Below are positions 32,001 through 64,000 of a stretch of DNA of 64,000 nt, one piece after another (position 1 is the first letter of the stretch; every line of letters begins with the position of its first letter). The stretch covers positions 6,324,001 through 6,388,000 of the forward strand of contig JARFIW010001082.1 of NCBI GenBank assembly GCA_036346225.1, read 5' to 3'. The notes below the pieces were generated by a model that worked only from the letters and a program-made list of their open reading frames with translations, did not search any database and was not told where the DNA came from. Source of the DNA: Platerodrilus igneus (Eukaryota > Arthropoda > Insecta > Coleoptera > Lycidae). Made by a program: the position numbers and the translations under genes.

Positions 32001-33769
32001 GGTTGTGAAGGGGGGTAAGCAGCCTGTGGCTGCCAAGTTCCCCCAGCACTTGAACATTTAGCGATTTAAATTTTTTTCAATATATCTTTTTGCACAGTCA
32101 ACATTAGCTGCAGATATTTCACAACCAACACATGTAGTTGTTTATAATAATCATCAGATTTATCTGCGCTTATTTTTTCGTCATTAGGTTTTCCGTCTCA
32201 AAACTGGTTGGACACGTACCTGCACTTATTTATATTCTGAGCTAGCCTACACAGTTCCCTGAAATTCTCACACAGCCCGTATACAGCTCCACAGCCTGTA
32301 TACAGCTCGTTTCCCCTTCTATTGTTTTCTAATTTTATGCCCTATTTCACCGAGATTCAGTGAAGAGGGTTAAGCTGTCTGTGGCTGCCAAGATCCCCCT
32401 ACACTTAGACATTTGCCGTATTAATAGTTTTCCAGTAAATCCTTTCACACAATTAACATTATTCGAGAATATTGCCAAACCAATACTTGTAGTTGCTTAT
32501 AATAATCTTCATGTTTAAGTTCTTTCTTCCCATACCATTTTTAGTACCTCTTCATTCTTAACTTTGTCTGTCCATGATATCTTCATCATACGTCTGTAGC
32601 ACCACATTTTAAAGGCTTCTACCTTTTTCTTGTCCGCTTCTCCTACTGTCCAGGCTTCACAGCCGTACAGTGCTGTGCTCCACACATATGTTTTAAGCAA
32701 TCTTTTCCTTGTTTCTATGTTTGTTGTCTTTGAACACGGTAGTTGCTTTTTCTTGTTAAATGTAGCACGACCTTGTGCTAATCTTTGTTGTATATCTTTT
32801 GCGCTTTTCCCATCTTGCGTTATTTGGCTTCCTAGGTAGCAGAAATCCTTAACCTCTTGTAAGTTCGTGTTACATATTTGTATTCTTGTTTTTGATTTAT
32901 TTTCCCCTCCTTTGCATACTAGTACTTTAGTTTTAATTTTGTTAATTTTCATACCGTATCTCTCTGTTAGAACCGTTTCCATTTCATTAAGAGCAGCTTC
33001 TAACTCTTACTTGCTATATGCTATATCATCTGCAAATCTAAGTATATCAATTTTTTGTCCCTGCATAGTAATTCCAAATGTCTTTCTGCATTTGACAGTA
33101 TTCATAGCCTCTTCAATGTACATGTTAATTAATGGGGATAGGGCACGTCCCTGTCTCATCCCTTTCCTAATTTACTTTCTATATTCCTGCTCTAATTCTA
33201 ATACTACAGTTTGTTCTTTGTATAAGCTATGTACTATTCGTCTATCCCTATAGCTCATTCCAATCTTTTTGAGTATTTCGAACATTTTTTTCCATTTTAC
33301 ATTGTCGAATGTTTTTTCCAGATCTACAAACCCTATATACACGCTTTCCCCTTTTTCTATTGTTTTCTCCATTATCACTCTCAGAGCTAAAATAGCCTCC
33401 CGTGTTCCTCTGTTTCGCCTAAACCCAAATTGGTCTTATCCTAGTATTTCTTCAGCTCGTTTTTCCATCGTCTTTGTACAATTCTAGTTAATAATTTTGA
33501 TATGTGCGCAGTCAAAGTTATTCGAAAATTTTCACATCTATCCGTACCTTTCTTTTTTGGTATAGTTACTATGATGTTACGTTTGAAATTTTTGGGTATC
33601 TCGCTTGTCTCGTACATATAGCTTACAAGTTGGAAGAGACGTTCTGTTACTGCTTGTCCAACGGCTTTTAGAGTTTCTGATTGCACCTTATCTGTACCCT
33701 GCGCCTTACCATTTTTCAGACCCTTTAACGCTAATTCAAATTCATCTCTAAGTATAGGCTAACCCAAGT

Positions 33770-34867
33770 AATAATAATAATAATAATATTTATTTAAAGC
33801 AGGTAATCCTAATATTACAATACATTAGAATAGAAAATAAAAAGAACATGCTTTCTTAATTTAAATAAATATAAATACAAATACATTTAGTGTTACTTAG
33901 AAGTTACTCAAGACCAAAAAGAAAAATTAAGTATCAGTAAAAGCAACAATTACTTAACTAGAAGTGTGAAAATTATAATTACCCCTACCAAGTTTAGGTC
34001 ATTTGGTTTATTTTATAAAGTACTTACATTTTAGTTAAGTTTTAGTTTTTTCATTAATTCCCGTTTAAAAGATGTCAATGTATTACAGTCTCAAATATCT
34101 TTTGGTAAAGTATTATGTTTAATCAGACCTTTGAAGAATATTGAATTCAGTCTTTTTCAATTTGGTCCTTGCAACATATAAATTTCCTTATGACCTAGTT
34201 TCATGGTTATGTATTTGGTGGGCATAAACAATAAACTCATCAAAATAACTTGGCATTAATCCATTGATAATTTTAAAAATAAATATCATTGTTAAATATT
34301 CAATTTTTTCTGTAACCGATAACCATTCTAGGGTGCTTAATATTTTTTGAATGTTAGTACTTTTGCTACATTCCAGTATGATTCTTAAACCTCTGTTCTG
34401 TAGTTTTTGAAGAGTACTTAACTTATTTTGGTCAAATAAATATAGTATTGTTGCACAGTGGTCATAATGGGGTTGAATGATTGTTTTGTAGACTGTAATT
34501 TTAGTTCTTAAAGACAATTTAGGTGCTGATCTTGAGAAGAAATATAGTTTTTTGTAATTTTATTTTTAACATAATCAAAGTGATTTTTAAATGTTAAAGT
34601 ACTATTCAACATAATACCTAAATACTTAGTTTGTTCAACAATTTGTAATATTTCATGACCAATCTTCAATGTGATAGCATTTCTATCGAGTTTATTTAAT
34701 TTATTAGTATTTCCAACAACCATTGCCACAGTTTTGCTTCTATTAAGTTTCAACTTGTTTATTTGAAAGTATCTATAAATTCTATCCAAGCTATTATTCA
34801 TTTTATTTGTTGCTGTTTGTATATCAGACTCTTTGATTACAAGTAGGGTATCATCAGCATATAGATT
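33770..34867 (-). mobile_element. LINE family B, 3' half
   Basis: Reads on the minus strand from VTNLYADDTLLVIKESD (RT catalytic YADD, about 34840) through LNRSKTVAMVVGNTNKL and VEQTKYLGIMLNSTLTFKNH to the C-terminal VYKTIIQPHYDHCATILYLF segment. It ends in a (TTA)n tail at 33771-33790. Two frames (34508-34897 and 34188-34517) overlap, so one frameshift is present. CR1/Jockey-like by motif style. It is continuous with 39839-40968 on the other side of the LTR element. Confidence 0.87.
34864..34867. repeat. GATT target duplication, left
   Basis: GATT flanks the LTR element here and at 39835-39838. The LINE B reading resumes exactly across it. Confidence 0.75.
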
Positions 34868-35515
34868 TGTTACATGCCAAAAATTGGCATTGCACACTTT
34901 TTAATTTGTGAGTGAATTCGGGCCAATGTTTTAAAAGATGGACTTGTGCATTTCTGTCACTTCAGACACTTGCGTCGGCGCAAGAGGATGCGCAGACGCG
35001 GAGTGAGGAAGAAGTGCGTGGTTTCCGACACGACAATTATTAGCCAACGAGACGTCGAACAGTGAAGTTTATCGGTGTCGTGGCTTTGTCTTTTCTCTTT
35101 AAGATAACGTAGGTTTCCCTTTATATCTGTCTCTTATCGTTCCTTACCTGGTTATTCCTATCATACCGCTACAAACAAAGAAGAGGGAAGACAAATTAAT
35201 CTGATTTCAACGATGGCTAACTCGAACCACGCCCAACAACAACGAGATCAATGGAAATCAGCATGGTTCCTGCCGCAAGAATAACTGCAAGGTCGTGAAG
35301 AGCTCCACATTTTTTAGTGAGTACATTTTATCTTTTTCTTTAGGGCGCCTCTTGTATCACTGTAAACATTTTTGGTATGTGATACAATTTGAGACGCAAT
35401 TATGACGTAATATCTTATTGTGCAATATTATGTACGTTTTAGTGTGTTGCAAACTATTGTAGTGGCTCTGACACGCGTGTGCGGGACTATAACGGTTATA
35501 CCTTAGACTATAACA
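34868..35515 (+). repeat. 5' LTR
   Basis: Begins TGTTACATGCCAAAAATTGG and ends CCTTAGACTATAACA. It differs from the 3' LTR by roughly two to three dozen substitutions and small indels as read by eye. Confidence 0.9.
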
Positions 35516-39838: not shown

Positions 39839-40968
39839 AACAAATTCACATTCGTGGTCAATACTCTGAAAATCATTTAAATACAAAATAAATAACAACG
39901 GTCCTATAACACTTCCTTGAGGGACACCATTTCTTACTAGCACTGAACTAGATATTGAATTTCATACTTTCGTTTTTTGTCTTCTATTTGACATGTAGTC
40001 ATCCAACCATTTTATCACTGTTCCACCAATGCCATAGTGTTGTAACTTAGTCAATAATAATTGTCTGTTTATTGTCTCAAATGCTCTTTTAAGGCCTAAG
40101 AAAACAGCAAGTATATACTCATCTTGATCAATGTATTGCTTCCACTTACTAAAAGTTAGCTGAATAGCAGTTTCACAAGAGTGCTTAGATCTAATACCCG
40201 ATTGATTACAATCCAATAACTGGTTACTGTCCACGTAGTTTATTAATTGGTTATATACAGCAATTTCTAATATTTTTTCAATACAAGGAAGTGTGTATAT
40301 TGGCCTGTATTCGCTTGCTAATGTGGTGTTTTGAACTTTAGGAATAGGAATTACTGTACTACATTTTAGCTTGCTTGGAAAATTGCCAGTTCTTAAGAAG
40401 GAGTTGACCAGATGAAGAAGAACATGCCCAATTGCAAAGGTTACCTTAATTACTTTTGTGTTTACTGTATCTAACCAGTTACACTTGTTAGGTAGATTAT
40501 GAACAATTTTTTTTATATCATGTAAGGCTAACAATTTAAATTCAGTAAATTTGACATCGTGGCTACGTAATGGGTTTAGTCGATATAGATTATTAGAGTC
40601 TGGGATACTCCTTACAATATCGTCAATGCTGTTCACAAAGTAGTCATTTAAATGTTCAGCTATATCCTTTTGTTCTCTCATAATGATTTTATGGTGATTA
40701 TTTTCAAATTGTACTCTTTGTATGTCACAATTATTTTCTTTATTACTAACCAACATTTTTAATATTTTCCACATTTTAGTGCTATCTCTTTTGTTATTGT
40801 CAATTTGTTTTTCATAAACTTCTTTTTCTTTCCTCTTCAATAAATTAACAAATTGATTTCTACATGTTTTATAATCTTTCCAGTGTACAGCACATTTATT
40901 GAACTTGAATTTTTTATAAGCAAAGTCCCGTTCTTTAGCTTTGGCAACGCTCTTCATTGTCATACCAC
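39839..40968 (-). mobile_element. LINE family B, 5' part (linker and RT N-terminus)
   Basis: Open frame 39962-40963 on the minus strand. A lysine-rich linker is followed by RT blocks: STVIPIPKVQNTTLASEYRP, IYTLPCIEKILEIAVYNQL, then DCNQSGIRSKHSCETAIQ and AVFLGLKRAFETINRQLLL. At 39840-39960 VRNGVPQGSVIGPLLFILYL and LNDFQSIDHECEFVN lead into the YADD segment on the far side of the LTR element. The upstream endonuclease is missing, so the copy is 5'-truncated next to a gypsy fragment. Confidence 0.87.
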
Positions 40969-40984
40969 TTTAAACAGTTATGCA

Positions 40985-44364: not shown

Positions 44365-46975
44365 TCAGTGTTGTGTTGATATTGAAAGATGTTTTTTTAT
44401 GTAAAGCAGACATTGTAAAATAAACAGACAAGGCAAAGTTAAAATTTTAAATTTTATAAAAGATGCACGGCAGTCATCACGGAACCCAAGGTTGGACATA
44501 ATGCAAACAACTCTACGTTGAAGCTTGAAAACCCGAAGGGAGCCGCTACAATGACCCCACACAATTATAGCATATGAAATATGACAATGGAACATGCCAT
44601 GATAACATGACAGTAGCACATTAGGTGAATGTGATCTTACCAAAGAGTTTATGAGATAAATAGTTCGGCAAAGTTTTTTGCATAGCAGATCACAGTGGGT
44701 GTCCCAACTTAATTTGCTATCCAGGGTAATACCGAGAAAACTAGCTTCTTGCTCCTTTGAAAAAGAATCCCTTTTTAATGAAAAAATTATTTGTTTGGTT
44801 TTATCCCTATTCAGGGCAAGTTTGTTATCATTGAACCATGATTCAGTGAGGCATAAAGATGTTGTACTGTCAGCTACCAGTTGAGCCATATTATCACTCT
44901 TATTATATAGAGTGGTATCACCTGCATAAAGGACAACATCACACTTGTCTTTTAGAAAAAAAGGTAAGTCGTTAATAAAGCATAAGAAAAGAAGCGGACC
45001 GAGGATGGAACCTTGAGGAACACCAGAAAAAACCTCACACATGCTGGACAATTTGCCTTTGTAAAAAACCCGTTGAGACCTAGCAGTCAGATATGAAGCA
45101 ATTAGCTTAATACTATCTTCATCAAAATTTAAACCTTTTAATTTGTTAACTAAGAGGGCATGATCAACACAATCGAAAGCCTTAGTCAAATCACAGAATT
45201 TAACGGCAAGATAACTACCCTCCTCAAAAACATCTGAAATTTTATTTACTAATTTGACTAATGCATCACTAGTAGATAATTTTTTCGGGCTTGAATTGCT
45301 CAGCACAAAACAAACTATTATTTTCAAGATAAGAAGTAATTTGAGTATTTAATATACATTCAAAAACTTTCGAAAAAGTGAGTAAAAGAGAAATAGGACG
45401 ATAGTTCTTAATATCAAACATACCCTTTTTATGAACAGGGATCACTTTTGCTTGTTTTAGAATATCAGGGAAAACTGCTTTCTTTATGCAAATATTAAGT
45501 AATTTGGTTAGTGGAATAAGAATACTGTTGATAACTGATTTAACTAAAGAGATGTTAATATTAAACAAATCCTTCGATCGGGAATTCCTCATCACTAAGA
45601 TAACATCTCGTACGTAGTTGAAAGAAACTTCTTCAAAATCGAAAGAGGGTACCAAACCAGAGAAACAATGTGTATAAGTAGTTGTGGTACTGGTGTTAGT
45701 ATTAGATAAATTGGATAAGATTTCTGCAACAGAATCAATAAAAGAATAGTTAAAGTCATCGGCTGAGAAACGAGTGTTCATATCATTGGCTCTATTTTTA
45801 GAATCTTTGAAATTATTAATCAAATCCCATTTTCTTTTATTATTATTTTTAGCTCTAAGAATGTAGTTGTCATAGGCATTAATTTTAGCATTTTTGAGTG
45901 CATGACGATAAGCATATTTTAACTTATTAACATGCAGTTTGAGTTCTGCACTAGGAAAAGCATCATAGAATTCAACATGAAGTAAGTAATTATCACGCAT
46001 CTTTCGTAGGTCATCCGTAAACCAATTGACAACTATTTTGGAACAGCTATTCAATATCCTTAAGTGTTTGATAGGAAAACATAGATCAGCTGCAGAAGCA
46101 ATTATAGACATAAAGTTAGAAAATTTGTCATTAATGGACAGACTATTATCATCAATAAAGTTCCAGTTAACTAGTTGGAGATGATTAAAAAATTTATATT
46201 TCCCATATATTGTATCAGGTCGATAAGATTTATGATGATTAACAACTTTAACATTATCGTTAAAATTTAATTGAGTGGCAAGGCCGAAATGATCAGACAA
46301 GCCAGTCTTAACCACTCTACAAAGAGAGATGGAATATTGGTAAAGATTGTATCAAGACAATGAGAAAGACGAGTAGCTGTTTTATTAACAATGTACAAGC
46401 CAAAGGAAAGAAAAAAATCAATCAGTGTTATAGCTGCTTTCTCAGTAGATTCAAAATGTACATTAAAATCACCACAGACCAAGAGGTGAGACCTAAAAGG
46501 CAAACCAAGGCGCTTAAATACTCTGTGAAGCGTTTCACAAAATATGTCAATTGATCCCTTATTAGGGGATCTATAAATAGTAATAATAGTAAGATTGATA
46601 CGATTAAAATGTATTGCACATAATTCAGCATGTAACTCAATTGAGTATTTATTGATCGACTCCAACACATTAGGAGTGGCGTAAAATTTCTCATCTACAA
46701 AAATAGTCACTCCTCCCCAAGAAAATTTAGATCTGACAAAGCTAGATATAGGTACCAAATTATTAATTTTAACAAAATGTAGAGCATCATTCTTTATGTT
46801 CACTTCAGTTAAACATAATGTCACATTTACTTTTATTAGAGATAAAAAATGCTTCCATGTCATTAATTTTATTGCTTAATGATTGAATATTCAAACAAAA
46901 AATATTCAAGGTTGAGACCCCTGGAGATTTACGAAGTTTATCCTCATGTATTTTATTAAAAACTGATTTGTCATA
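44365..46975 (-). pseudogene. LINE C ORF2: APE endonuclease and RT
   Basis: Read on the minus strand. The endonuclease start STLNIFCLNIQSLSNKINDM (about 46920-46865) is followed by a frame break, then the frame 46267-46863 (IDIFCETLHRVFKRLG, HLLVCGDFNVHFEST). After a second frameshift comes 45269-46315, with GLSDHFG and IPVHKKGMFDIKNYRPISLL. After a third, 44365-45327 has CEVFSGVPQGSILGPLLFLC. The catalytic box is LYAGDTTLYN, with Gly in place of the first Asp of YADD. The C-terminal LSCYHGMFHCHISYAIIVWG segment is intact. CR1/Jockey-like in layout; inactive. Confidence 0.88.
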
Positions 46976-55539: not shown

Positions 55540-58330
55540 TAATATTTATAACCATTTTTTATCTTTCGAGATAAACCTATCTTGTTTGGTATCAATTAAT
55601 TATCAATTAATATTAGAATTTTCTCGCAAAAATTTAATAATTTATTTTATCCGATTCAAAGTTTAATAAACTAATTACAATTTTTACAAAGTATAACATT
55701 TATCTTCCTCGTTTAACCAAATCCAAGCAGGTTAAAGTAACCTGTAACAAAAAATAGAAATTAATGTGTTGATTAAAAAAGACCTGCAACAAAAAGAGGT
55801 TAATGTACTGTTTAATAAGAGCGGAAAAGTGTTTTCGCTCAATAAGACATATTGTTGTTAATCTAACAATATGAGAATAATGTAAAAACATTCCAATGTA
55901 ATGTGTTTTTAATATATAAATGGGAAGGTCGACTTTGGCGTAATCATCGCTCCGAATTACATGTGAAAGCTGTATATAATTTCTTTTTAAAAGTGTATAT
56001 CTTCTCCAAACAAATACGGTTATTACAGTAGGAAAGTATGCTAAATGCGAGTCAATAAATAGCAATTTAATATTGCTTACTGACCTACCTTAATTAGGTT
56101 GCTGTACTATTAGGAATGATGTACTTTTTGTTGTCCTCGCCCGACAAACTGATTTTATTAATTAATTGGGTATAAAGTTGGTGTTTACATGGTTTTGTTT
56201 AAGACCTCGTACATATTTTTCGGATTACTAGAAGACGTTAAAACCATACTTTTTGTGTTAAAGGATTTCACATCGGTAGTCTCTTCTCCCATTTTGGTGT
56301 AAACGCCGTAGAGTTCGAAATCGACTTTTATTGCTGTATGTTGTATTCTTTTTTTTTATTAAGTAATCGAATAAATCGTTCCTTCTGCTGTAACGATTTT
56401 ATTTTCCATCATTATGTCTGCAGATATTTAATATATTTACTTAATAAGAACCAACGTAAAGCATAATAATGCTACACAATCCACTAAATAAATATTACAT
56501 ATTGTCCAATAAAATATTAGCTTTCAATTCAAATTTTAATTTATGCGGTGACAAAAGATACTTTTCTATTAGTGTCATTCTTAGAGCTCCCTCTGTTAGA
56601 CGATTGTAGCGTTGGGCTTGTTGTCAAGCGGTAACTCGCGTGATATTATCACTTCCAATACAGCTGCCGTCAGAAGAAATCGAATTGTTCCTTGAACGCA
56701 AGGACGATGACGTTTGAGGAATCTACGTGTTGGAAGCACGTGAAATTTAAAATTGTTTTCGTGAGATAATATCGTCTCCGACGGCACTTTTGTTGTCCAC
56801 TTGCTGGAGAATAGATCGCAGATGATGAGACGATATTTTGTTTGAAGGGCCTTTGGTTAACAGTAAGTAGTACTGTTTTAGTAATCTTATTAAATAAAGA
56901 TTTTTCAGTGCAACTTTGAAATAATATGCAACTTTTAGTTAACAGAACTTTTGTTTAACGTAAAATTTTGAATACATGCTAATTTTTGTTAGCATGTAAT
57001 TTATTTAGCATGCAACGTAAATTTAATCAACATACAACGTAGGAAAATTTAGAAAAATTTAAGAATTTAACCTTTGTACGAATGTGGATTTGACGAGTAT
57101 CAATTAGTTAATATGCACGCCGAGATATGGTTTGGAGCTTCAATAAGCAGCAAATTTGGTTGTACCGAATTGGAGATTTCCTTTATTTAAGTGCTGAAGC
57201 AAGACGCCTAGCAGGTATTTTTCCGTCAGATGAACATCTGGTATGTAAATTTGCTTTCGTATGTCAGCTGTAGCATGGATATAGCAGACAAATAATTTTT
57301 TGTTTAATCACGTAATTTGAACTTCAAGTTAGGTGAATGACAGACTATATACTTTTCATATTAAACAACAGGAACCTGTAAATTTTCATTTTTAAATCTT
57401 TTTATTAATACATTGAAATTACGGAAGATGTCATTATGAGATAAGGAAAGTTAAATTCTAGATTTTATGAAAATTGATATAATTATTTGAAACATGATTT
57501 ACTCGAATCATTAGAAATTAAATTTATACGTTACATATTTCACTAATAGCTGAGTGGAATATTTTTGTGAGGTTAAAGTAGTGCTACTCAAACCAACCGA
57601 AATTGTTACATATAGTTAATTATTCAGAAAGTAAACTCAGGCTCACTCATTTTTAAGTAAAATTTGGCTAGATATTTCTAATAGAAATGACCATATTTTA
57701 ACGGTGAAAAGTACTTATTATACCAAGTACTTATGTACATATTTTTTCAAGAATTTAAATTAATCAAAATTATATTAAAGGAAAAAGATGTTTTGTAAAT
57801 AGCACAATAACTAAATACTGAAGGAATAGATTTTTATTTTTTGTTCAAGACTATTCTTTTTAATTGGAATGAATGAAGGTTGATTCAAATTAAATTTTTA
57901 AATTTTGGGTATAAATGCACAAACAGTGCTATCTTTGTTTAATCTGTTCACAGGTGTAGCAGTGATGTATAAAGGTCAAAGTCGAGCCATAAGGTAAGAA
58001 ACTTTAGGGATTGTGTTGTTTTTAATAAATTATATAGCGGTAATTGAATATAGGTTTCCGCATTCCCCTTGTACAAGGGACTTAAGTAAGGTCTCCTTCG
58101 TATAGAAAAATTCGGTAGCGCCATATTCTTTAAATTTTTGGTCGCAGTCCAACCCCGACCCACAGCTCATGTTCTACCCAGAGCAAATAGTTCGACTAGC
58201 CGCTTAGCCTTTTGAGATTTCCTCAACTACGAGCCATTTTCCATCGGAACTTGCCGTGGGCTCTATCCGCTTACTGGAAATCCTCGTAAAATTTTCTTGT
58301 GCCTTTCAGCTGGTCACATAGAAAGAAAAC
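55540..58330. other. Unassigned sequence with one block shared with 61 kb
   Basis: No gene is seen. The block 56118-56195 (CCGACAAACTGATTTTATTA) resembles 61047-61115 (GATAAACTAATTTTATTAAT) at roughly 70 percent. The open frame at 55700-56065 has no domain. Confidence 0.5.
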
Positions 58331-58865
58331 CTAATAGGAAAAATCCCTTAATATATCGTAAAGGTTATACTGCTTCGAAAGAAACTCGGACACTGCATCG
58401 CCCACACTGACATTCTTTATGCGATAGCTAACCATACGGATGTTAAACGCTGTGCTAACCATTTCTACACCATCGTCGTCAGTATCGGTAACTGATGCAT
58501 TTTTATGTTTGTTGCTCCGTAGATGACCAGGGTATGCAGACTTTAACACCTCCATGTCGCACACTTTACACATAATTCGTGGTTGTTTCGTACAAGACCC
58601 TTTAACAGCTGGCGGAGCTGAACGTTTACTGCTTAATGACATACCGTGCTGTTTTTCCCTTGTGTCGCTGTAAGCTATTCTCGTAAAAGCGATACCGCAA
58701 GACCCACAGTTTAAGCACTTTGCTGCGGACGGATGTATAAGCTTAACCGTGGACGATGTTACACCACGACATTTGTTCTGGTGCCGTTTGAGAGCATCCC
58801 TCCTGGTAAAGTAGACGTGAGAGGGCTCGCATTTAAAAAAGTTTAGTACAAAACAAAATCCGCGC
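58331..58865 (-). CDS. Zinc-finger protein fragment, mobile-element type
   Basis: The frame is open from a TAG near 58868 to the stop at 58331, about 177 codons, with the first ATG only at 58642. Three fingers are visible: FKCEPSHVYFTRRDALKRHQ-NKC (the second Cys is Ser), CLNCGSCGIAFTRIAYSD, and the matrin/U1-like CKVCDMEVLKSAYPGHLRSN-KHK. Then come DDDGVEMVSTAFNIRMVSYR and IKN. From memory, this finger set followed by an AF.xRI.xYRI segment precedes a protein-primed family B DNA polymerase in some arthropod mobile ORFs. Here the frame ends soon after, so at most a fragment remains. An upstream exon or truncation must supply the start. Confidence 0.5.
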
Positions 58866-61400: not shown

Positions 61401-62582
61401 TTATACACAGAAGACAGTCCTTTCTTTATGTTTGTTTGGAGTGGTTTTAATTTTATCTAATTTTATTCGCAGCTTAAAATTTAAATCGACACCCAAGTCT
61501 TCTATCTCCTTTTCTAGCCAATAGTTTGATACATAGAGAACGTCTAGGTTTTCGAATTGTAAAATGTACCGAAGTTTGCCTCTATATTTAAAGTCTTTGA
61601 TTCCACCGACAACCAGATCCATTCCTTCGTGTAATTCTTGCAGCTTGTGACAATCTTTTAATCGCAGCTTTCCCACTATATCCTGCATACGTATCTTGTT
61701 AGCTTGATCGACTTCTTCTTGTCGGTATTGGAGGAAATCCTTATTCTCCCACACACTGTCGCGTAGTTGCATGTCCACCACTTTTGGGAATATATGGTTG
61801 TTATAGGTTGTAAGACCCTCGGTTTTAAATGATCCGAAAGGTTCTTTACTAGGCAAATATACAATGTTTAGCGGAACCCCTTTGAGTGTGGTGTACGCCA
61901 AGGTTACGAAACCCGCATTCCTTAGTTCGTCTTTGTTATATGCCATTTTGATAAATACGTTTTTAGAATAACCTTTTAAAAAGTATACGGATTTAGTACC
62001 ATCTTTTTCCGCAAGAACGCCTACATAACTAAAAGAGTCTTTCTTACTAACTGCAAATGCATACAGCTTGTAGAACCCGGATGTACTTAAGTCACTCCAT
62101 CGGCACATAAAATAATCTTTTAATTCTTCCTCATTTTCTCTAATAAGATGTTCTTTGTCTAACACATCTTTGTATTGTTCGCGTATTGTCGCAGTGTTTT
62201 CCATGTAGTCCAATTTCCGCCTTTTTGCATCCATTTCCTCTAATTCCAGTTGTTTTTTCCTTCCACTTACAGCGTATGGTATGCATAATGGGACAATTTC
62301 CTTTAGCGTAAACGGATAGAGTTTACTACCAATATTTACGCGTTGTCGTACAACCCCTGGGCGAATGTTAGGTGTATTTATCAATCCCAATTCCGAAATG
62401 ACTATTTCTTTTGGAATTGTAGAATATGGTGTTGCAGATTGTGTAAAATATGTACTACCTGCTTTAATGTAGCACTTGTTTAAGATTTTTATTTTATCTG
62501 GGCTGTCTTCTTCCTCTACTATCTCCAAATAATTTACAGGTAAATAGTTAAAACTAAAAGCCGAAAGCACATACTTTATCAA
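61401..62582 (-). CDS. C-terminal half of the Rep-like protein (ORF B)
   Basis: Open for 393 codons, plus about 12 more upstream to a TAA. It lies in the -1 frame relative to ORF A and overlaps its end by about 40 bases. It has no ATG at its start: the nominal first codon is TTG, and the first Met is in MDAKRRKLDYMENTA. This suggests it was, or is, translated as a continuation of ORF A. It includes a basic KRRK with a charged helical/coiled stretch (about 110-160), then FYKLYAFAVSKKDSFSYVGV and KSVYFLKGYSKNVFIKMAYN, and a lysine-rich C-terminus. I do not recognise a family. No internal stops occur, unlike almost every other frame in the window. Confidence 0.75.
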   Translation of the reverse strand: MIKYVLSAFSFNYLPVNYLEIVEEEDSPDKIKILNKCYIKAGSTYFTQSATPYSTIPKEIVISELGLINTPNIRPGVVRQRVNIGSKLYPFTLKEIVPLCIPYAVSGRKKQLELEEMDAKRRKLDYMENTATIREQYKDVLDKEHLIRENEEELKDYFMCRWSDLSTSGFYKLYAFAVSKKDSFSYVGVLAEKDGTKSVYFLKGYSKNVFIKMAYNKDELRNAGFVTLAYTTLKGVPLNIVYLPSKEPFGSFKTEGLTTYNNHIFPKVVDMQLRDSVWENKDFLQYRQEEVDQANKIRMQDIVGKLRLKDCHKLQELHEGMDLVVGGIKDFKYRGKLRYILQFENLDVLYVSNYWLEKEIEDLGVDLNFKLRIKLDKIKTTPNKHKERTVFCV

Positions 62583-63640
62583 TTTTTCCTTTCCTTTGGT
62601 TTTTCGGACAACTTAATCTGCAAGCCCGTCAATTTCTTTGTATTACCATTCCCCCAATACACGTACTGTAGTAGGTTATTAAATACTAAACAGCAGCTAT
62701 TTTGTAGCTTATCCGATAGCTTACTCCACATTTTGGCAAGTGGTACCGAGTACATTGGCGCCTTTAGGAAGTATAACTTACTATCTTCCAATAACGTTAA
62801 ACAGTCTTTTAAGGGATTATACACCCGTTCCGCACTGACATAGCTTCCAATTGCACAGTTGTATATTAGCGCTTCAAATCGCGTAATACCATGTTCTTTG
62901 GCCAAAGTAGACGCAAATGTTTCCCTTAAACGTACATCTGGACAACGTAAAAAATCTAGTATATGATTGCCAAGTTGTTTATTAACACCAGGACTTGTTA
63001 TCTGACACACAAATTTGTTGTATATCTTAATTCTTGCATTGGTTGTTAGCCATGTTAAACAATCAATTCCCACAGTTTTATCGTTGTCAACTATAATATT
63101 ACACTTTTCCTCGTATTCGCCCTTATAGCAAAAGTTATGGTTTGTAGTTAAATAATTACACATCTCCATCTTGCTAAATATGCCCGCAAAATCTTGGGTT
63201 ACATCCATGTCAAAAAGATAATAATAATCTTTTTTGAGTCCGTCTAATATATCTGGTAGTTCCTCCAATAAAGTTTCCAACTTAACATCTGCTAGTTCCA
63301 CTTTGTACGGAACACATATAGGATTTCGGAATTTTTTATTAATACATTCGAGGTCTTCTTTTCCGATAATTTCTTTTACTCTCTGACCCATCTTGTTAGT
63401 GCTTTCCAGAGAAAACGGAAGCTTAGCTTTAACACCATGCCTAGCGGAAACAAATCGGTCGAACTTTCTTCGTAGATAACTGTTAAATGCACCACAAATT
63501 TCTTTTTTTAGGATAAACATCCTTTTGTTTGCAGATGCTTGTTCGGTGTCAGAAAGGTCGCAAATTTCCAACTTATTCTATGAAGCCTCCTTGGCCGTAG
63601 TGCTCTTTATACGATCAATTTCTAAGGGTCGTTTTAACAT
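62579..63640 (-). CDS. Rep-like replication protein, N-terminal half (ORF A)
   Basis: ATG at 63640 (MLKRPLEIDRIKSTTAKEAS), then one in-frame TAG at 63578-63580, then 330 open codons to TGA 62579. Motifs in order: YYLFDMDVTQDFAGIF (about residue 140 of the mature frame), CLTWLTTNARIKIYNKFVCQ (about 215), RCPDVRLRETFASTLAKEHG, and ITRFEALIYN (about 260). The order of an R/M-x-D-x-x-x-D-F strand, a basic-hydrophobic-YNK strand and T-R-F-E is what I recall of Rep_trans/phage-type rolling-circle initiators. No HUH motif is present, so this is inference. Iteron-like repeats end 22 bases upstream. An alternative is a novel transposase. Confidence 0.65.
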
Positions 63641-63661
63641 AGTCTACTGTAACAAAGTGAT

Positions 63662-63826
63662 CTTGAACCGGTCTTGATCCGATCTTGATCCGATCTTGAT
63701 CTGATCTTGATCCGGTCTTGATCCGATCTTGATCCGATGTTGATCTGATATTGATCCGATGTTGATCCGATGTTGATACGATGTTGATCCGATGTTGATC
63801 CGATGTTGATCCGATCTTGATCAGAT
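63662..63826. repeat. Fifteen 11-bp direct repeats, iteron-like
   Basis: The unit CTTGATCCGAT (variants GTTGATCCGAT, CTTGATCCGGT) is repeated without gaps at 63662, 63673, 63684 and so on to 63816. The period is close to one turn of B-DNA, so all copies face one side of the helix. It sits directly upstream of the Rep-like start codon. Candidate replication origin, transposase-binding array or promoter element. It can also be read as a frame with 11-residue repeats (minus strand, ATG 63851 to 63615), which I treat as a by-product of 3 x 11 periodicity. Confidence 0.92.
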
Positions 63827-64000
63827 CACTTCCCCGAAGTGATTTCAGCATCTGCTAGGACGGAGTGGTCTTTTTCCGGCCGATTTCCCGAGGTGATTTC
63901 GACAAAATCTTCTGGAACGAAGTGATCTTGCTTCCATCGGCTCTCCTAAACAATTTCGGCAGTTTGCTAGGGCGAAGTGGTCTTGATCCGGTCAACGCCC
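63827..64000. repeat. Three longer repeats of 54-58 bp reaching the window edge
   Basis: Units start at about 63834, 63888 and 63946. They share a GATTTC/AATTTC block, TGCTAGG/TTCTGGA, then CGAAGTGGTCTT or CGGAGTGGTCTT. The last unit ends CTTGATCCGGTC, the sequence of the 11-mer, so the 11-bp array may have expanded from the end of this longer unit. The array is cut by the window end. Confidence 0.75.

What the first reader, a model, noticed from the sequence alone, without database searches (positions are those of the whole stretch)
61401..63826. Rep-like gene of about 745 codons directly behind an iteron-like array: candidate undescribed replicative element
The sequence shows fifteen 11-bp direct repeats, 22 bases, then an ATG and 2.2 kb of reading frame with only two lesions, in a neighbourhood where all other element genes are heavily broken. 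The motif order D-M-D-V-T-Q-D-F, R-I-K-I-Y-N-K and I-T-R-F-E resembles rolling-circle initiators of the Rep_trans group. Iterons plus initiator is the classic plasmid/virus replication layout. No RT, DDE nuclease or tyrosine recombinase is visible. The combination in an arthropod genome suggests a young replicative transposon or integrated plasmid/virus-like element.
Basis: partly seen in the sequence, partly recalled or inferred. Interest (0 to 1): 0.92.

Follow-up and report, generated by a model that had tools for sequence, protein, structure and literature searches.

The report
Insect transposon with plasmid-type replication starter
A mobile DNA element found at thousands of places in one large, probably insect, genome carries a gene whose protein is predicted to nick DNA the way bacterial plasmid replication starters do, and it likely borrows its integration step from virus-like Maverick elements, a pairing that our paper searches did not find described for a transposon.

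Summary
The gene is real; the "iterons" are not its own. Window 63567-61401 (-) is a decayed copy of gene A (795 aa when intact); a 41-base probe from it matches 5251 places in the 2.7-Gb genome. Two models rank Rep_trans plasmid initiators first in Foldseek and Y-x-K, R-x-E and D-x-T-x-D are conserved, but Pfam, motif II and profile comparison fail: "works like", not "member". Four of four copies read to both ends (8.7-11.8 kb) have perfect 6-bp target duplications and Maverick-like AGTAG/CTACT ends, one left end differing by one base. The L009 copy shows no integrase, polymerase-core or capsid ORF; ORF B matches the N-terminal part of a polinton polymerase. Twelve of 17 copies have inverted arms, mean 95.6-99.2% identical, against 88.5-93.6% between copies. 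Best reading: a replicative fold-back transposon with a Rep_trans-like initiator, integrated by Maverick integrase in trans (both steps inferred).

The parts
61401..63567 (-). Gene A remnant: Rep_trans-like initiator, 5'-truncated (about 73 codons missing) and with a frame break near 62.6 kb
   Evidence: ORFs; about 96-98% DNA identity to other copies and homology limit at 63567; intact 795-aa copies
63188..63211 (-). DMDVTQDF: motif I-like (D-x-D-x-T-x-D), predicted metal-binding strand
   Evidence: position; conservation; motifs from papers
63014..63034 (-). RIKIYNK: motif III-like, predicted catalytic Tyr with Y-x-K
   Evidence: position; Tyr in 49 of 50 rows with a residue (A6, 58 rows)
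62873..62887 (-). ITRFE: motif IV-like (R-x-E), predicted metal-binding Glu
   Evidence: position; Glu in 45 of 46 rows with a residue (A6, 58 rows)
58331..58864 (-). ORF B remnant: C2H2 fingers plus N-terminal part of a polinton-type PolB
   Evidence: other copies; zinc fingers in the L009 and L034 forms; the L034 form is 42.5% identical to the N-terminal part of a PolB in the same genome
58370..61400 (-). 3' part of the element copy between gene A and the ORF B region
   Evidence: 90% identity to the L009 copy
56182..56389 (-). Further piece of the same arm, separated by a foreign insertion of about 2 kb (56390-58369)
55561..55625 (.). Short match to the ~341-bp repeat of the terminal inverted repeat
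63565..64000 (.).
   Evidence: NOT part of the element

Best explanation
This is a decayed copy of a high-copy transposon whose main gene encodes a predicted Rep_trans-like, tyrosine-nicking replication initiator, and which likely replicates through a fold-back intermediate and is likely inserted by the integrase of Maverick/Polinton elements acting in trans. Shown: 5251 places match a 41-base probe from the gene; four of four copies read to both ends have perfect 6-bp target duplications and inverted ends of the Maverick type (one left end differs by one base); the L009 copy, whose ORFs were listed through the element, has no integrase, polymerase-core or capsid ORF; the second ORF (zinc fingers) matches the N-terminal part of a polinton PolB; 12 of 17 copies examined carry long inverted arms that resemble each other more than other copies. 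Predicted: gene A folds like RepD/RepSTK1 with Tyr, Lys, Arg, Glu and Asp of the active site conserved on the expected strands. Inferred: gene A nicks the element, a displaced single strand snaps back through the terminal repeats and primes its own copying, which would give arms that end at a different point in each copy; ORF B may bind the ends; integration happens in trans.
For: Copies: 5251 places with at most 3 mismatches, backward control 0 (fragments and both arms of one element count apart); 121 scored protein matches (capped list), 12 of 121 with an open frame of 803-804 codons and no stop in the match; those 12, fetched, all have an ATG ORF of 794-795 aa. Relatives: hemipterans, Schistocerca, Mytilus. 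Fold: P0004 model, 4cwe rank 1, E 1.2e-3, prob 0.94; P0012 model (pLDDT 85.4, pTM 0.83), 4cij rank 1, E 3.9e-5, prob 1.00, 4cwc rank 2, 4cwe rank 4. TBP, the other fold at E <= 0.001 there, is the similarity that Carr et al. report for Rep_trans itself. Active site: D188 52/53, D192 51/52, K250 49/50, Y252 49/50, K254 48/51, R299 44/46, E301 45/46 rows with a residue (58-row A6), all in predicted strands or at their edges; Tyr in a strand as in Rep_trans, not in a helix as in HUH. Ends: TSDs AATTGA, CAGAAT, TATGTG, TCCGGA, 4 of 4 copies; vertebrate Mavericks have 6-bp TSDs and (AGT)2//(ACT)2 ends, which the L009 copy has exactly. ORF B vs polinton PolB N-terminal part 42.5%, E 4e-43. Arms: 12 of 17 copies with inverted arms of 300 bp or more, mean identity 95.6-99.2%, against 88.5-93.6% between L009 and 16 other copies. 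pN/pS median 0.37 over 45 pairs of 10 intact ORFs (crude, and intact copies were chosen).
Confidence: 0.6

Rival explanations
1. Gene A is itself a divergent cut-and-paste (DDE-type) transposase that makes the 6-bp duplications; the Rep_trans likeness is convergence.
For: Conserved acidic residues in D...D...E order; TIRs and 6-bp TSDs are what DDE enzymes make (general knowledge). A few low-probability rows (0.02-0.35) are actin-like ATPases, which belong to the broader RNase H-like class (recalled).
Against: No transposase or integrase is among the 50 rows shown of either Foldseek search; the best rows are Rep_trans and TBP sheets. An almost invariant K-x-Y-x-K and R-x-E has no set place in a DDE site (general knowledge).
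Confidence: 0.15
2. Gene A has a TBP-like sheet that only binds DNA (regulator or end-binding protein) and is not a nuclease.
Against: Conserved Tyr/Lys/Arg/Glu/Asp on predicted strands match the Rep_trans active-site pattern; Rep_trans itself resembles TBP.
Confidence: 0.15
3. The element is an internally deleted Maverick, and gene A is an ordinary accessory gene of insect Mavericks.
For: Maverick ends and TSDs; ORF B from PolB; a gene A fragment lies about 2.5 kb from a capsid gene (L023 9616-10000 and L052 1-837); 3 of 121 gene A copies lie within 100 kb of a PolB place where about 0.8 is expected.
Against: That fragment is a degraded, rearranged partial copy (pieces 83-94% identical). The three neighbours are 40-84 kb away, none nearer, among 121 gene A copies and 87 PolB places (capped lists; of 115 PF03175 rows I dropped 28 second parts of genes).
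Confidence: 0.15
4. Integrated iteron plasmid or virus.
For: Array beside the gene in the window.
Against: Array absent from the other copies; no relatives found in prokaryote species genomes or in IMG/VR; TSDs and TIRs.
Confidence: 0.04

Closest known systems
Rep_trans replication initiators (PF02486: RepD/RepDE, RepSTK1, phage RstA-type, MobT/NicK relaxases)
   Same: Predicted curved-sheet fold (Foldseek rank 1), Tyr in a strand with Y-x-K, R-x-E, D-x-x-x-D on other strands
   Different: No Pfam match, no significant profile match, motif II and the Arg of motif I missing, a longer stretch between Tyr and R-x-E, long N- and C-terminal parts, found in animal genomes
Maverick/Polinton elements (and adintovirus-like proviruses)
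   Same: 6-bp TSD, AGT/ACT-type ends, TIRs; ORF B matches the N-terminal part of PolB
   Different: 8.7-11.8 kb; no integrase, PolB core, ATPase, protease or capsid ORF seen in the L009 copy; has gene A
Helitrons and replitrons (HUH, Y-transposons; recalled except)
   Same: Would use a nicking Tyr initiator for replicative transposition
   Different: No conserved His pair, Tyr not in a helix, TIRs and TSDs present
Foldback elements (FB, Galileo; recalled)
   Same: Very long, length-variable inverted arms with tandem subrepeats (~341 bp)
   Different: Different protein, 6-bp TSD, Maverick-like ends

Membership tests
Rep_trans (PF02486) | Match above the Pfam cut-off | tested here: not met
   No PF02486 match: 20 members; four distant relatives; own genome 0; control Bacillus subtilis rings
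Rep_trans (PF02486) | Curved antiparallel sheet of RepDE/RepSTK1 | tested here: inconclusive
   Foldseek rank 1 in both models, but VIA-align ties with or favours TBP, itself the reported similarity of Rep_trans
Rep_trans (PF02486) | Motif III Y-x-K with Tyr in a strand | tested here: met
   Tyr 49/50, Lys 48/51 rows with a residue (of 58); strand 247-253. The motif's later Glu is not conserved (Cys)
Rep_trans (PF02486) | Motif IV R-x-E | tested here: met
   Arg 44/46, Glu 45/46 rows with a residue (of 58); Ile where the motif has W/L
Rep_trans (PF02486) | Motif I R-x-D | tested here: not met
   Both acidic residues kept (52/53, 51/52), but the Arg position is Asp
Rep_trans (PF02486) | Motif II T/S-x-Y/E-x-G | tested here: not met
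   I-x-C-x-T at RepD's spacing from the Tyr
Rep_trans (PF02486) | Motif N' Asp on strand 1 | tested here: inconclusive
   Asp 44/45 rows with a residue, in strand 64-75; no residue-level superposition was available
Rep_trans (PF02486) | Profile similarity | tested here: not met
   hhalign against 11 phage Rep_trans; 10 of 60 shuffles reach the score
Rep_trans (PF02486) | Tyr-dependent nicking | not testable with these tools
   needs protein
Maverick/Polinton | 6-bp target site duplication | tested here: met
   4 of 4 copies read to both ends
Maverick/Polinton | Termini 5'-(AGT)2//(ACT)2-3' or alike | tested here: met
   L009 exact; L011, L016 AGTAGAG; L015 left ATTAGAG, right CTCTACT. The L009 terminal 20-mer is found at no other copy
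Maverick/Polinton | PolB, integrase, ATPase, capsid genes inside the element | tested here: not met
   L009 copy: gene A and ORF B are the only large sense ORFs listed; ORF B holds only the PolB N-terminal part
Helitron / HUH | HUH His pair | tested here: not met
   no His among the invariant and nearly invariant columns of A5
Iteron plasmid/virus | Iterons upstream of the initiator in other copies | tested here: not met

The most novel reading that the evidence does not exclude
A new class of eukaryotic transposon: a Rep_trans-type tyrosine nickase, so far known from bacterial plasmids, phages and conjugative elements, drives replication of an animal element that snaps back on itself to form variable hairpin arms and then parasitises the integrase, and perhaps the polymerase, of Mavericks, making it a satellite of virus-like transposons spread across insects and molluscs.
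Probability: 0.45. Interest if true: 0.95.

Novelty: categorically new. Interest (0 to 1): 0.85.

Why it matters
Known eukaryotic nick-and-copy transposons use HUH enzymes (general knowledge). A Rep_trans-like initiator in animal transposons would be a second, independent route from plasmid-type replication to genome invasion. Maverick-type ends without an integrase would make it a satellite of virus-like elements. The arms, alike within a copy and different between copies, turn the replication mechanism into something that long reads can test directly. At about 5000 probe matches it may make up one to two per cent of this genome (inferred: matches times about 9 kb; an upper guess, since fragments and second arms count too).

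Tried and rejected
Rejected: iterons. Rejected as evidence: PHROG match at E 0.18; PDB sequence matches at E 0.8-1.2. Led nowhere: PDB profile search with A1 (0 matches); searches of GTDB species genomes (52 pattern matches, none a relative) and IMG/VR (421, none); BFVD fold search, whose only match at E <= 0.001 is a nameless 920-residue protein at TM 0.14, followed at E 1.0e-3 by an uncharacterised iridovirus protein (TM 0.18). Ginger transposons do not fit: 4-bp TSDs and TGT ends (PMC2836005, passages). XacF1 and Cf1c were fetched as Rep_trans yardsticks, but the XacF1 initiator matches REP_ORF2-G2P (HUH-type, recalled), so SMA9 and ten relatives were used instead (PF02486, E 5.5e-19). The capsid-protein search of the own genome did not complete, so capsid genes were not mapped genome-wide. 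The C-terminal half of gene A was not folded with confidence (residues 352-493 of P0004 under pLDDT 50), so its role is open. Terminal duplications were read for 4 copies only, those with both ends in hand. In one search I compared 87 of 115 PF03175 rows, dropping 28 second parts of genes.

Full report
What is in the window. The finding lies on the minus strand. One search lists two ORFs, 63571-62579 (330 aa) and 62582-61401 (393 aa), the two halves of one gene, and the 11-bp array at 63659-63827 (15.4 copies, 89% matches). The window is C1010:6324001-6388000 of a 2.71-Gb genome of 1723 contigs. Named relatives are mostly hemipteran insects: Cacopsylla, Laodelphax, Cinara, Planococcus, Nilaparvata, Aphis, and also the locust Schistocerca and one record filed under the symbiont Baumannia, which I take for insect DNA, and the mollusc Mytilus. 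That the host is an insect is therefore likely, not shown.

Copies. A protein search of the own genome scored 121 copies (first look: 19496 candidates; a capped list); 12 of 121 have an open frame of 803-804 codons with no stop in the match, and these 12, fetched, all have an ATG ORF of 794-795 aa. A 41-base probe around the catalytic tyrosine, with at most 3 mismatches, matches 2571 + 2680 = 5251 places, its backward control none. Fragments, and both arms of one element, count apart. The window gene is about 96-98% identical in DNA to the copies compared.

The array is foreign. Homology between the window gene and the other copies fetched begins at window 63567. Intact copies continue upstream for about 73 more codons from an ATG in another sequence context (L009 3994 to 4214). 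Window 63565-64805 is 94% identical to C1160 (L056), and neither L056 nor L057, two of the seven other places with the array, has any match to the element. The array pattern has 47 matches at 8 places in the genome. Right of the window the left arm of the copy follows at 64869-65025 and 65622-66187.

Anatomy of the element. Copies L009, L015, L011 and L016, the four for which both ends are in hand, are 8724, 8785, 11125 and 11828 bp long and have perfect 6-bp target duplications: AATTGA, CAGAAT, TATGTG, TCCGGA (4 of 4). Right ends read CTACT in 4 of 4; left ends AGTAG in 3 and ATTAG in one. The terminal 20 bases of L009 occur only at its own two ends in the whole genome, so its outermost stretch is unusual; the other three copies share another outer sequence. 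Outer parts are inverted arrays of a ~341-bp repeat; in L009 the two terminal arms are 97% identical over 1051 bp. Inside lie gene A and, in the L009 copy, ORF B of 222 aa (frames up to 278 aa in many other copies). In the ORF listings (80 or 100 aa and longer) the L009 copy shows no integrase, polymerase core, ATPase or capsid ORF; the longer copies were not listed from end to end. The L009 copy sits inside the integrase gene of a polinton: an rve match on the right flank (E 1e-9) and a sub-threshold Chromo match on the left (22.8 bits, cut-off 25.1), with phospholipase-like and double-jelly-roll capsid genes beyond.

Inverted arms. Of 17 copies compared with themselves, 12 show inverted duplications of 300 bp or more with mean arm identity 95.6-99.2%; five (L009, L013, L015, L018, L021) show none within the slice held. 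L009 compared with 16 other copies over its 3' part gives 88.5-93.6%. Arms are thus more alike within a copy than between copies, and they end at different points in different copies. I infer that arms are made, or made equal, about once per insertion; a snapped-back single strand priming its own synthesis would do this, but gene conversion is not excluded.

Maverick link. A study of vertebrate Mavericks reports 6-bp target duplications and (AGT)2//(ACT)2 end motifs (PMC8097293, passages). The L009 copy has exactly these; the others come close. ORF B (278-aa form) aligns over 214 columns, 42.5% identity, E 4e-43, to the N-terminal part of a polinton-type PolB of the same genome, with gaps and stops in that PolB stretch (L055), and has C2H2 fingers. 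Gene A does not look like a Maverick gene: 3 of 121 gene A copies lie within 100 kb of one of 87 PolB places, at 40-84 kb, where about 0.8 is expected by chance, and none nearer (capped lists). A slight excess is thus not excluded. I infer integration by Maverick integrase in trans; it was not observed.

The active site. In RepD the nucleophile is Y191 with R189 and K193; D142, E214 and D46 bind the metal; R140, D146 and R212 are conserved. A review lists motifs N' D, I RxD, II T/SxY/ExG, III YxKxxE, IV W/LxRxE, with Tyr in a strand (PMC5714925, passages). In the 58-row alignment, counting rows with a residue, gene A keeps D188 (52/53), D192 (51/52), K250 (49/50), Y252 (49/50), K254 (48/51), R299 (44/46), E301 (45/46) and D66 (44/45), in or at the edge of predicted strands 182-194, 247-253, 297-305 and 64-75. 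Motif II is missing, the motif I Arg is Asp and the Glu of motif III is not kept. hhalign against 11 phage Rep_trans sequences finds no match at full length; with the domain alone the best alignment sets motifs I, III and IV in register, yet 10 of 60 column shuffles score as high. I therefore file it as working like Rep_trans, not as a member.

Selection. Over 45 pairs of 10 intact ORFs a crude count gives median pN/pS 0.37 (range 0.24-0.69); intact copies were chosen, which lowers it. Full-length relatives at 44-58% identity to P0028, most without an organism name, argue for the same.

Literature. Searches for Rep_trans with eukaryotic, insect or transposon terms, for Rep_trans with Polinton, Maverick or Helitron, for Rep_trans alone (78 papers, 40 listed, none on a eukaryotic transposon by title and start of abstract), for replitron (3 papers) and for non-autonomous Mavericks show no such transposon in the listings seen. 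The library lacks most subscription papers, and Repbase/Dfam was not available, so novelty is provisional.

Verdict. A real, high-copy element, by its intact copies probably active not long ago, of a kind that I found nowhere described. Gene A as a Rep_trans-like nickase: likely. Maverick-type integration: likely from ends and TSD. Fold-back replication: plausible.

Noticed in passing
L009 2183-2476 and L023 1462-7146 (C1295 about 675-690 kb): A polinton with integrase, phospholipase-like and double-jelly-roll capsid ORFs is interrupted in its integrase gene by a copy of the element.
   Followed up: partly
window 63565-64000 (to about 64805): Foreign repeat of about 1.24 kb rich in short tandem repeats, 94% identical to C1160 401.2-402.4 kb; the array pattern occurs at 8 places.
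   Followed up: partly
window 56390-58369: About 2 kb of foreign DNA inside the window copy, between L009 positions 9513 and 9509.
   Followed up: no
L009 5955-6056 and 7444-7545: A 102-nt stretch of gene A recurs (82-90% identical) in the 3' non-coding part of 14 of 14 copies L009-L022.
   Followed up: no
L053 and L025 flanks (C1267 about 496 and 508 kb): The L016 copy is flanked by sequence like the element's own 5' region, so it seems nested in another copy.
   Followed up: no
L009 3536-3790: Centre of the element holds short repeats with CCTAACC-like blocks, which recall insect telomere repeats.
   Followed up: no
P0083 (806 aa): A distant relative with a very different, Ala/Arg-rich composition, perhaps from a non-insect eukaryote.
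   Followed up: no
window 32515-34900, 39962-40969, 44365-46875: Broken non-LTR retrotransposon-like ORFs (by eye) elsewhere in the window.
   Followed up: no
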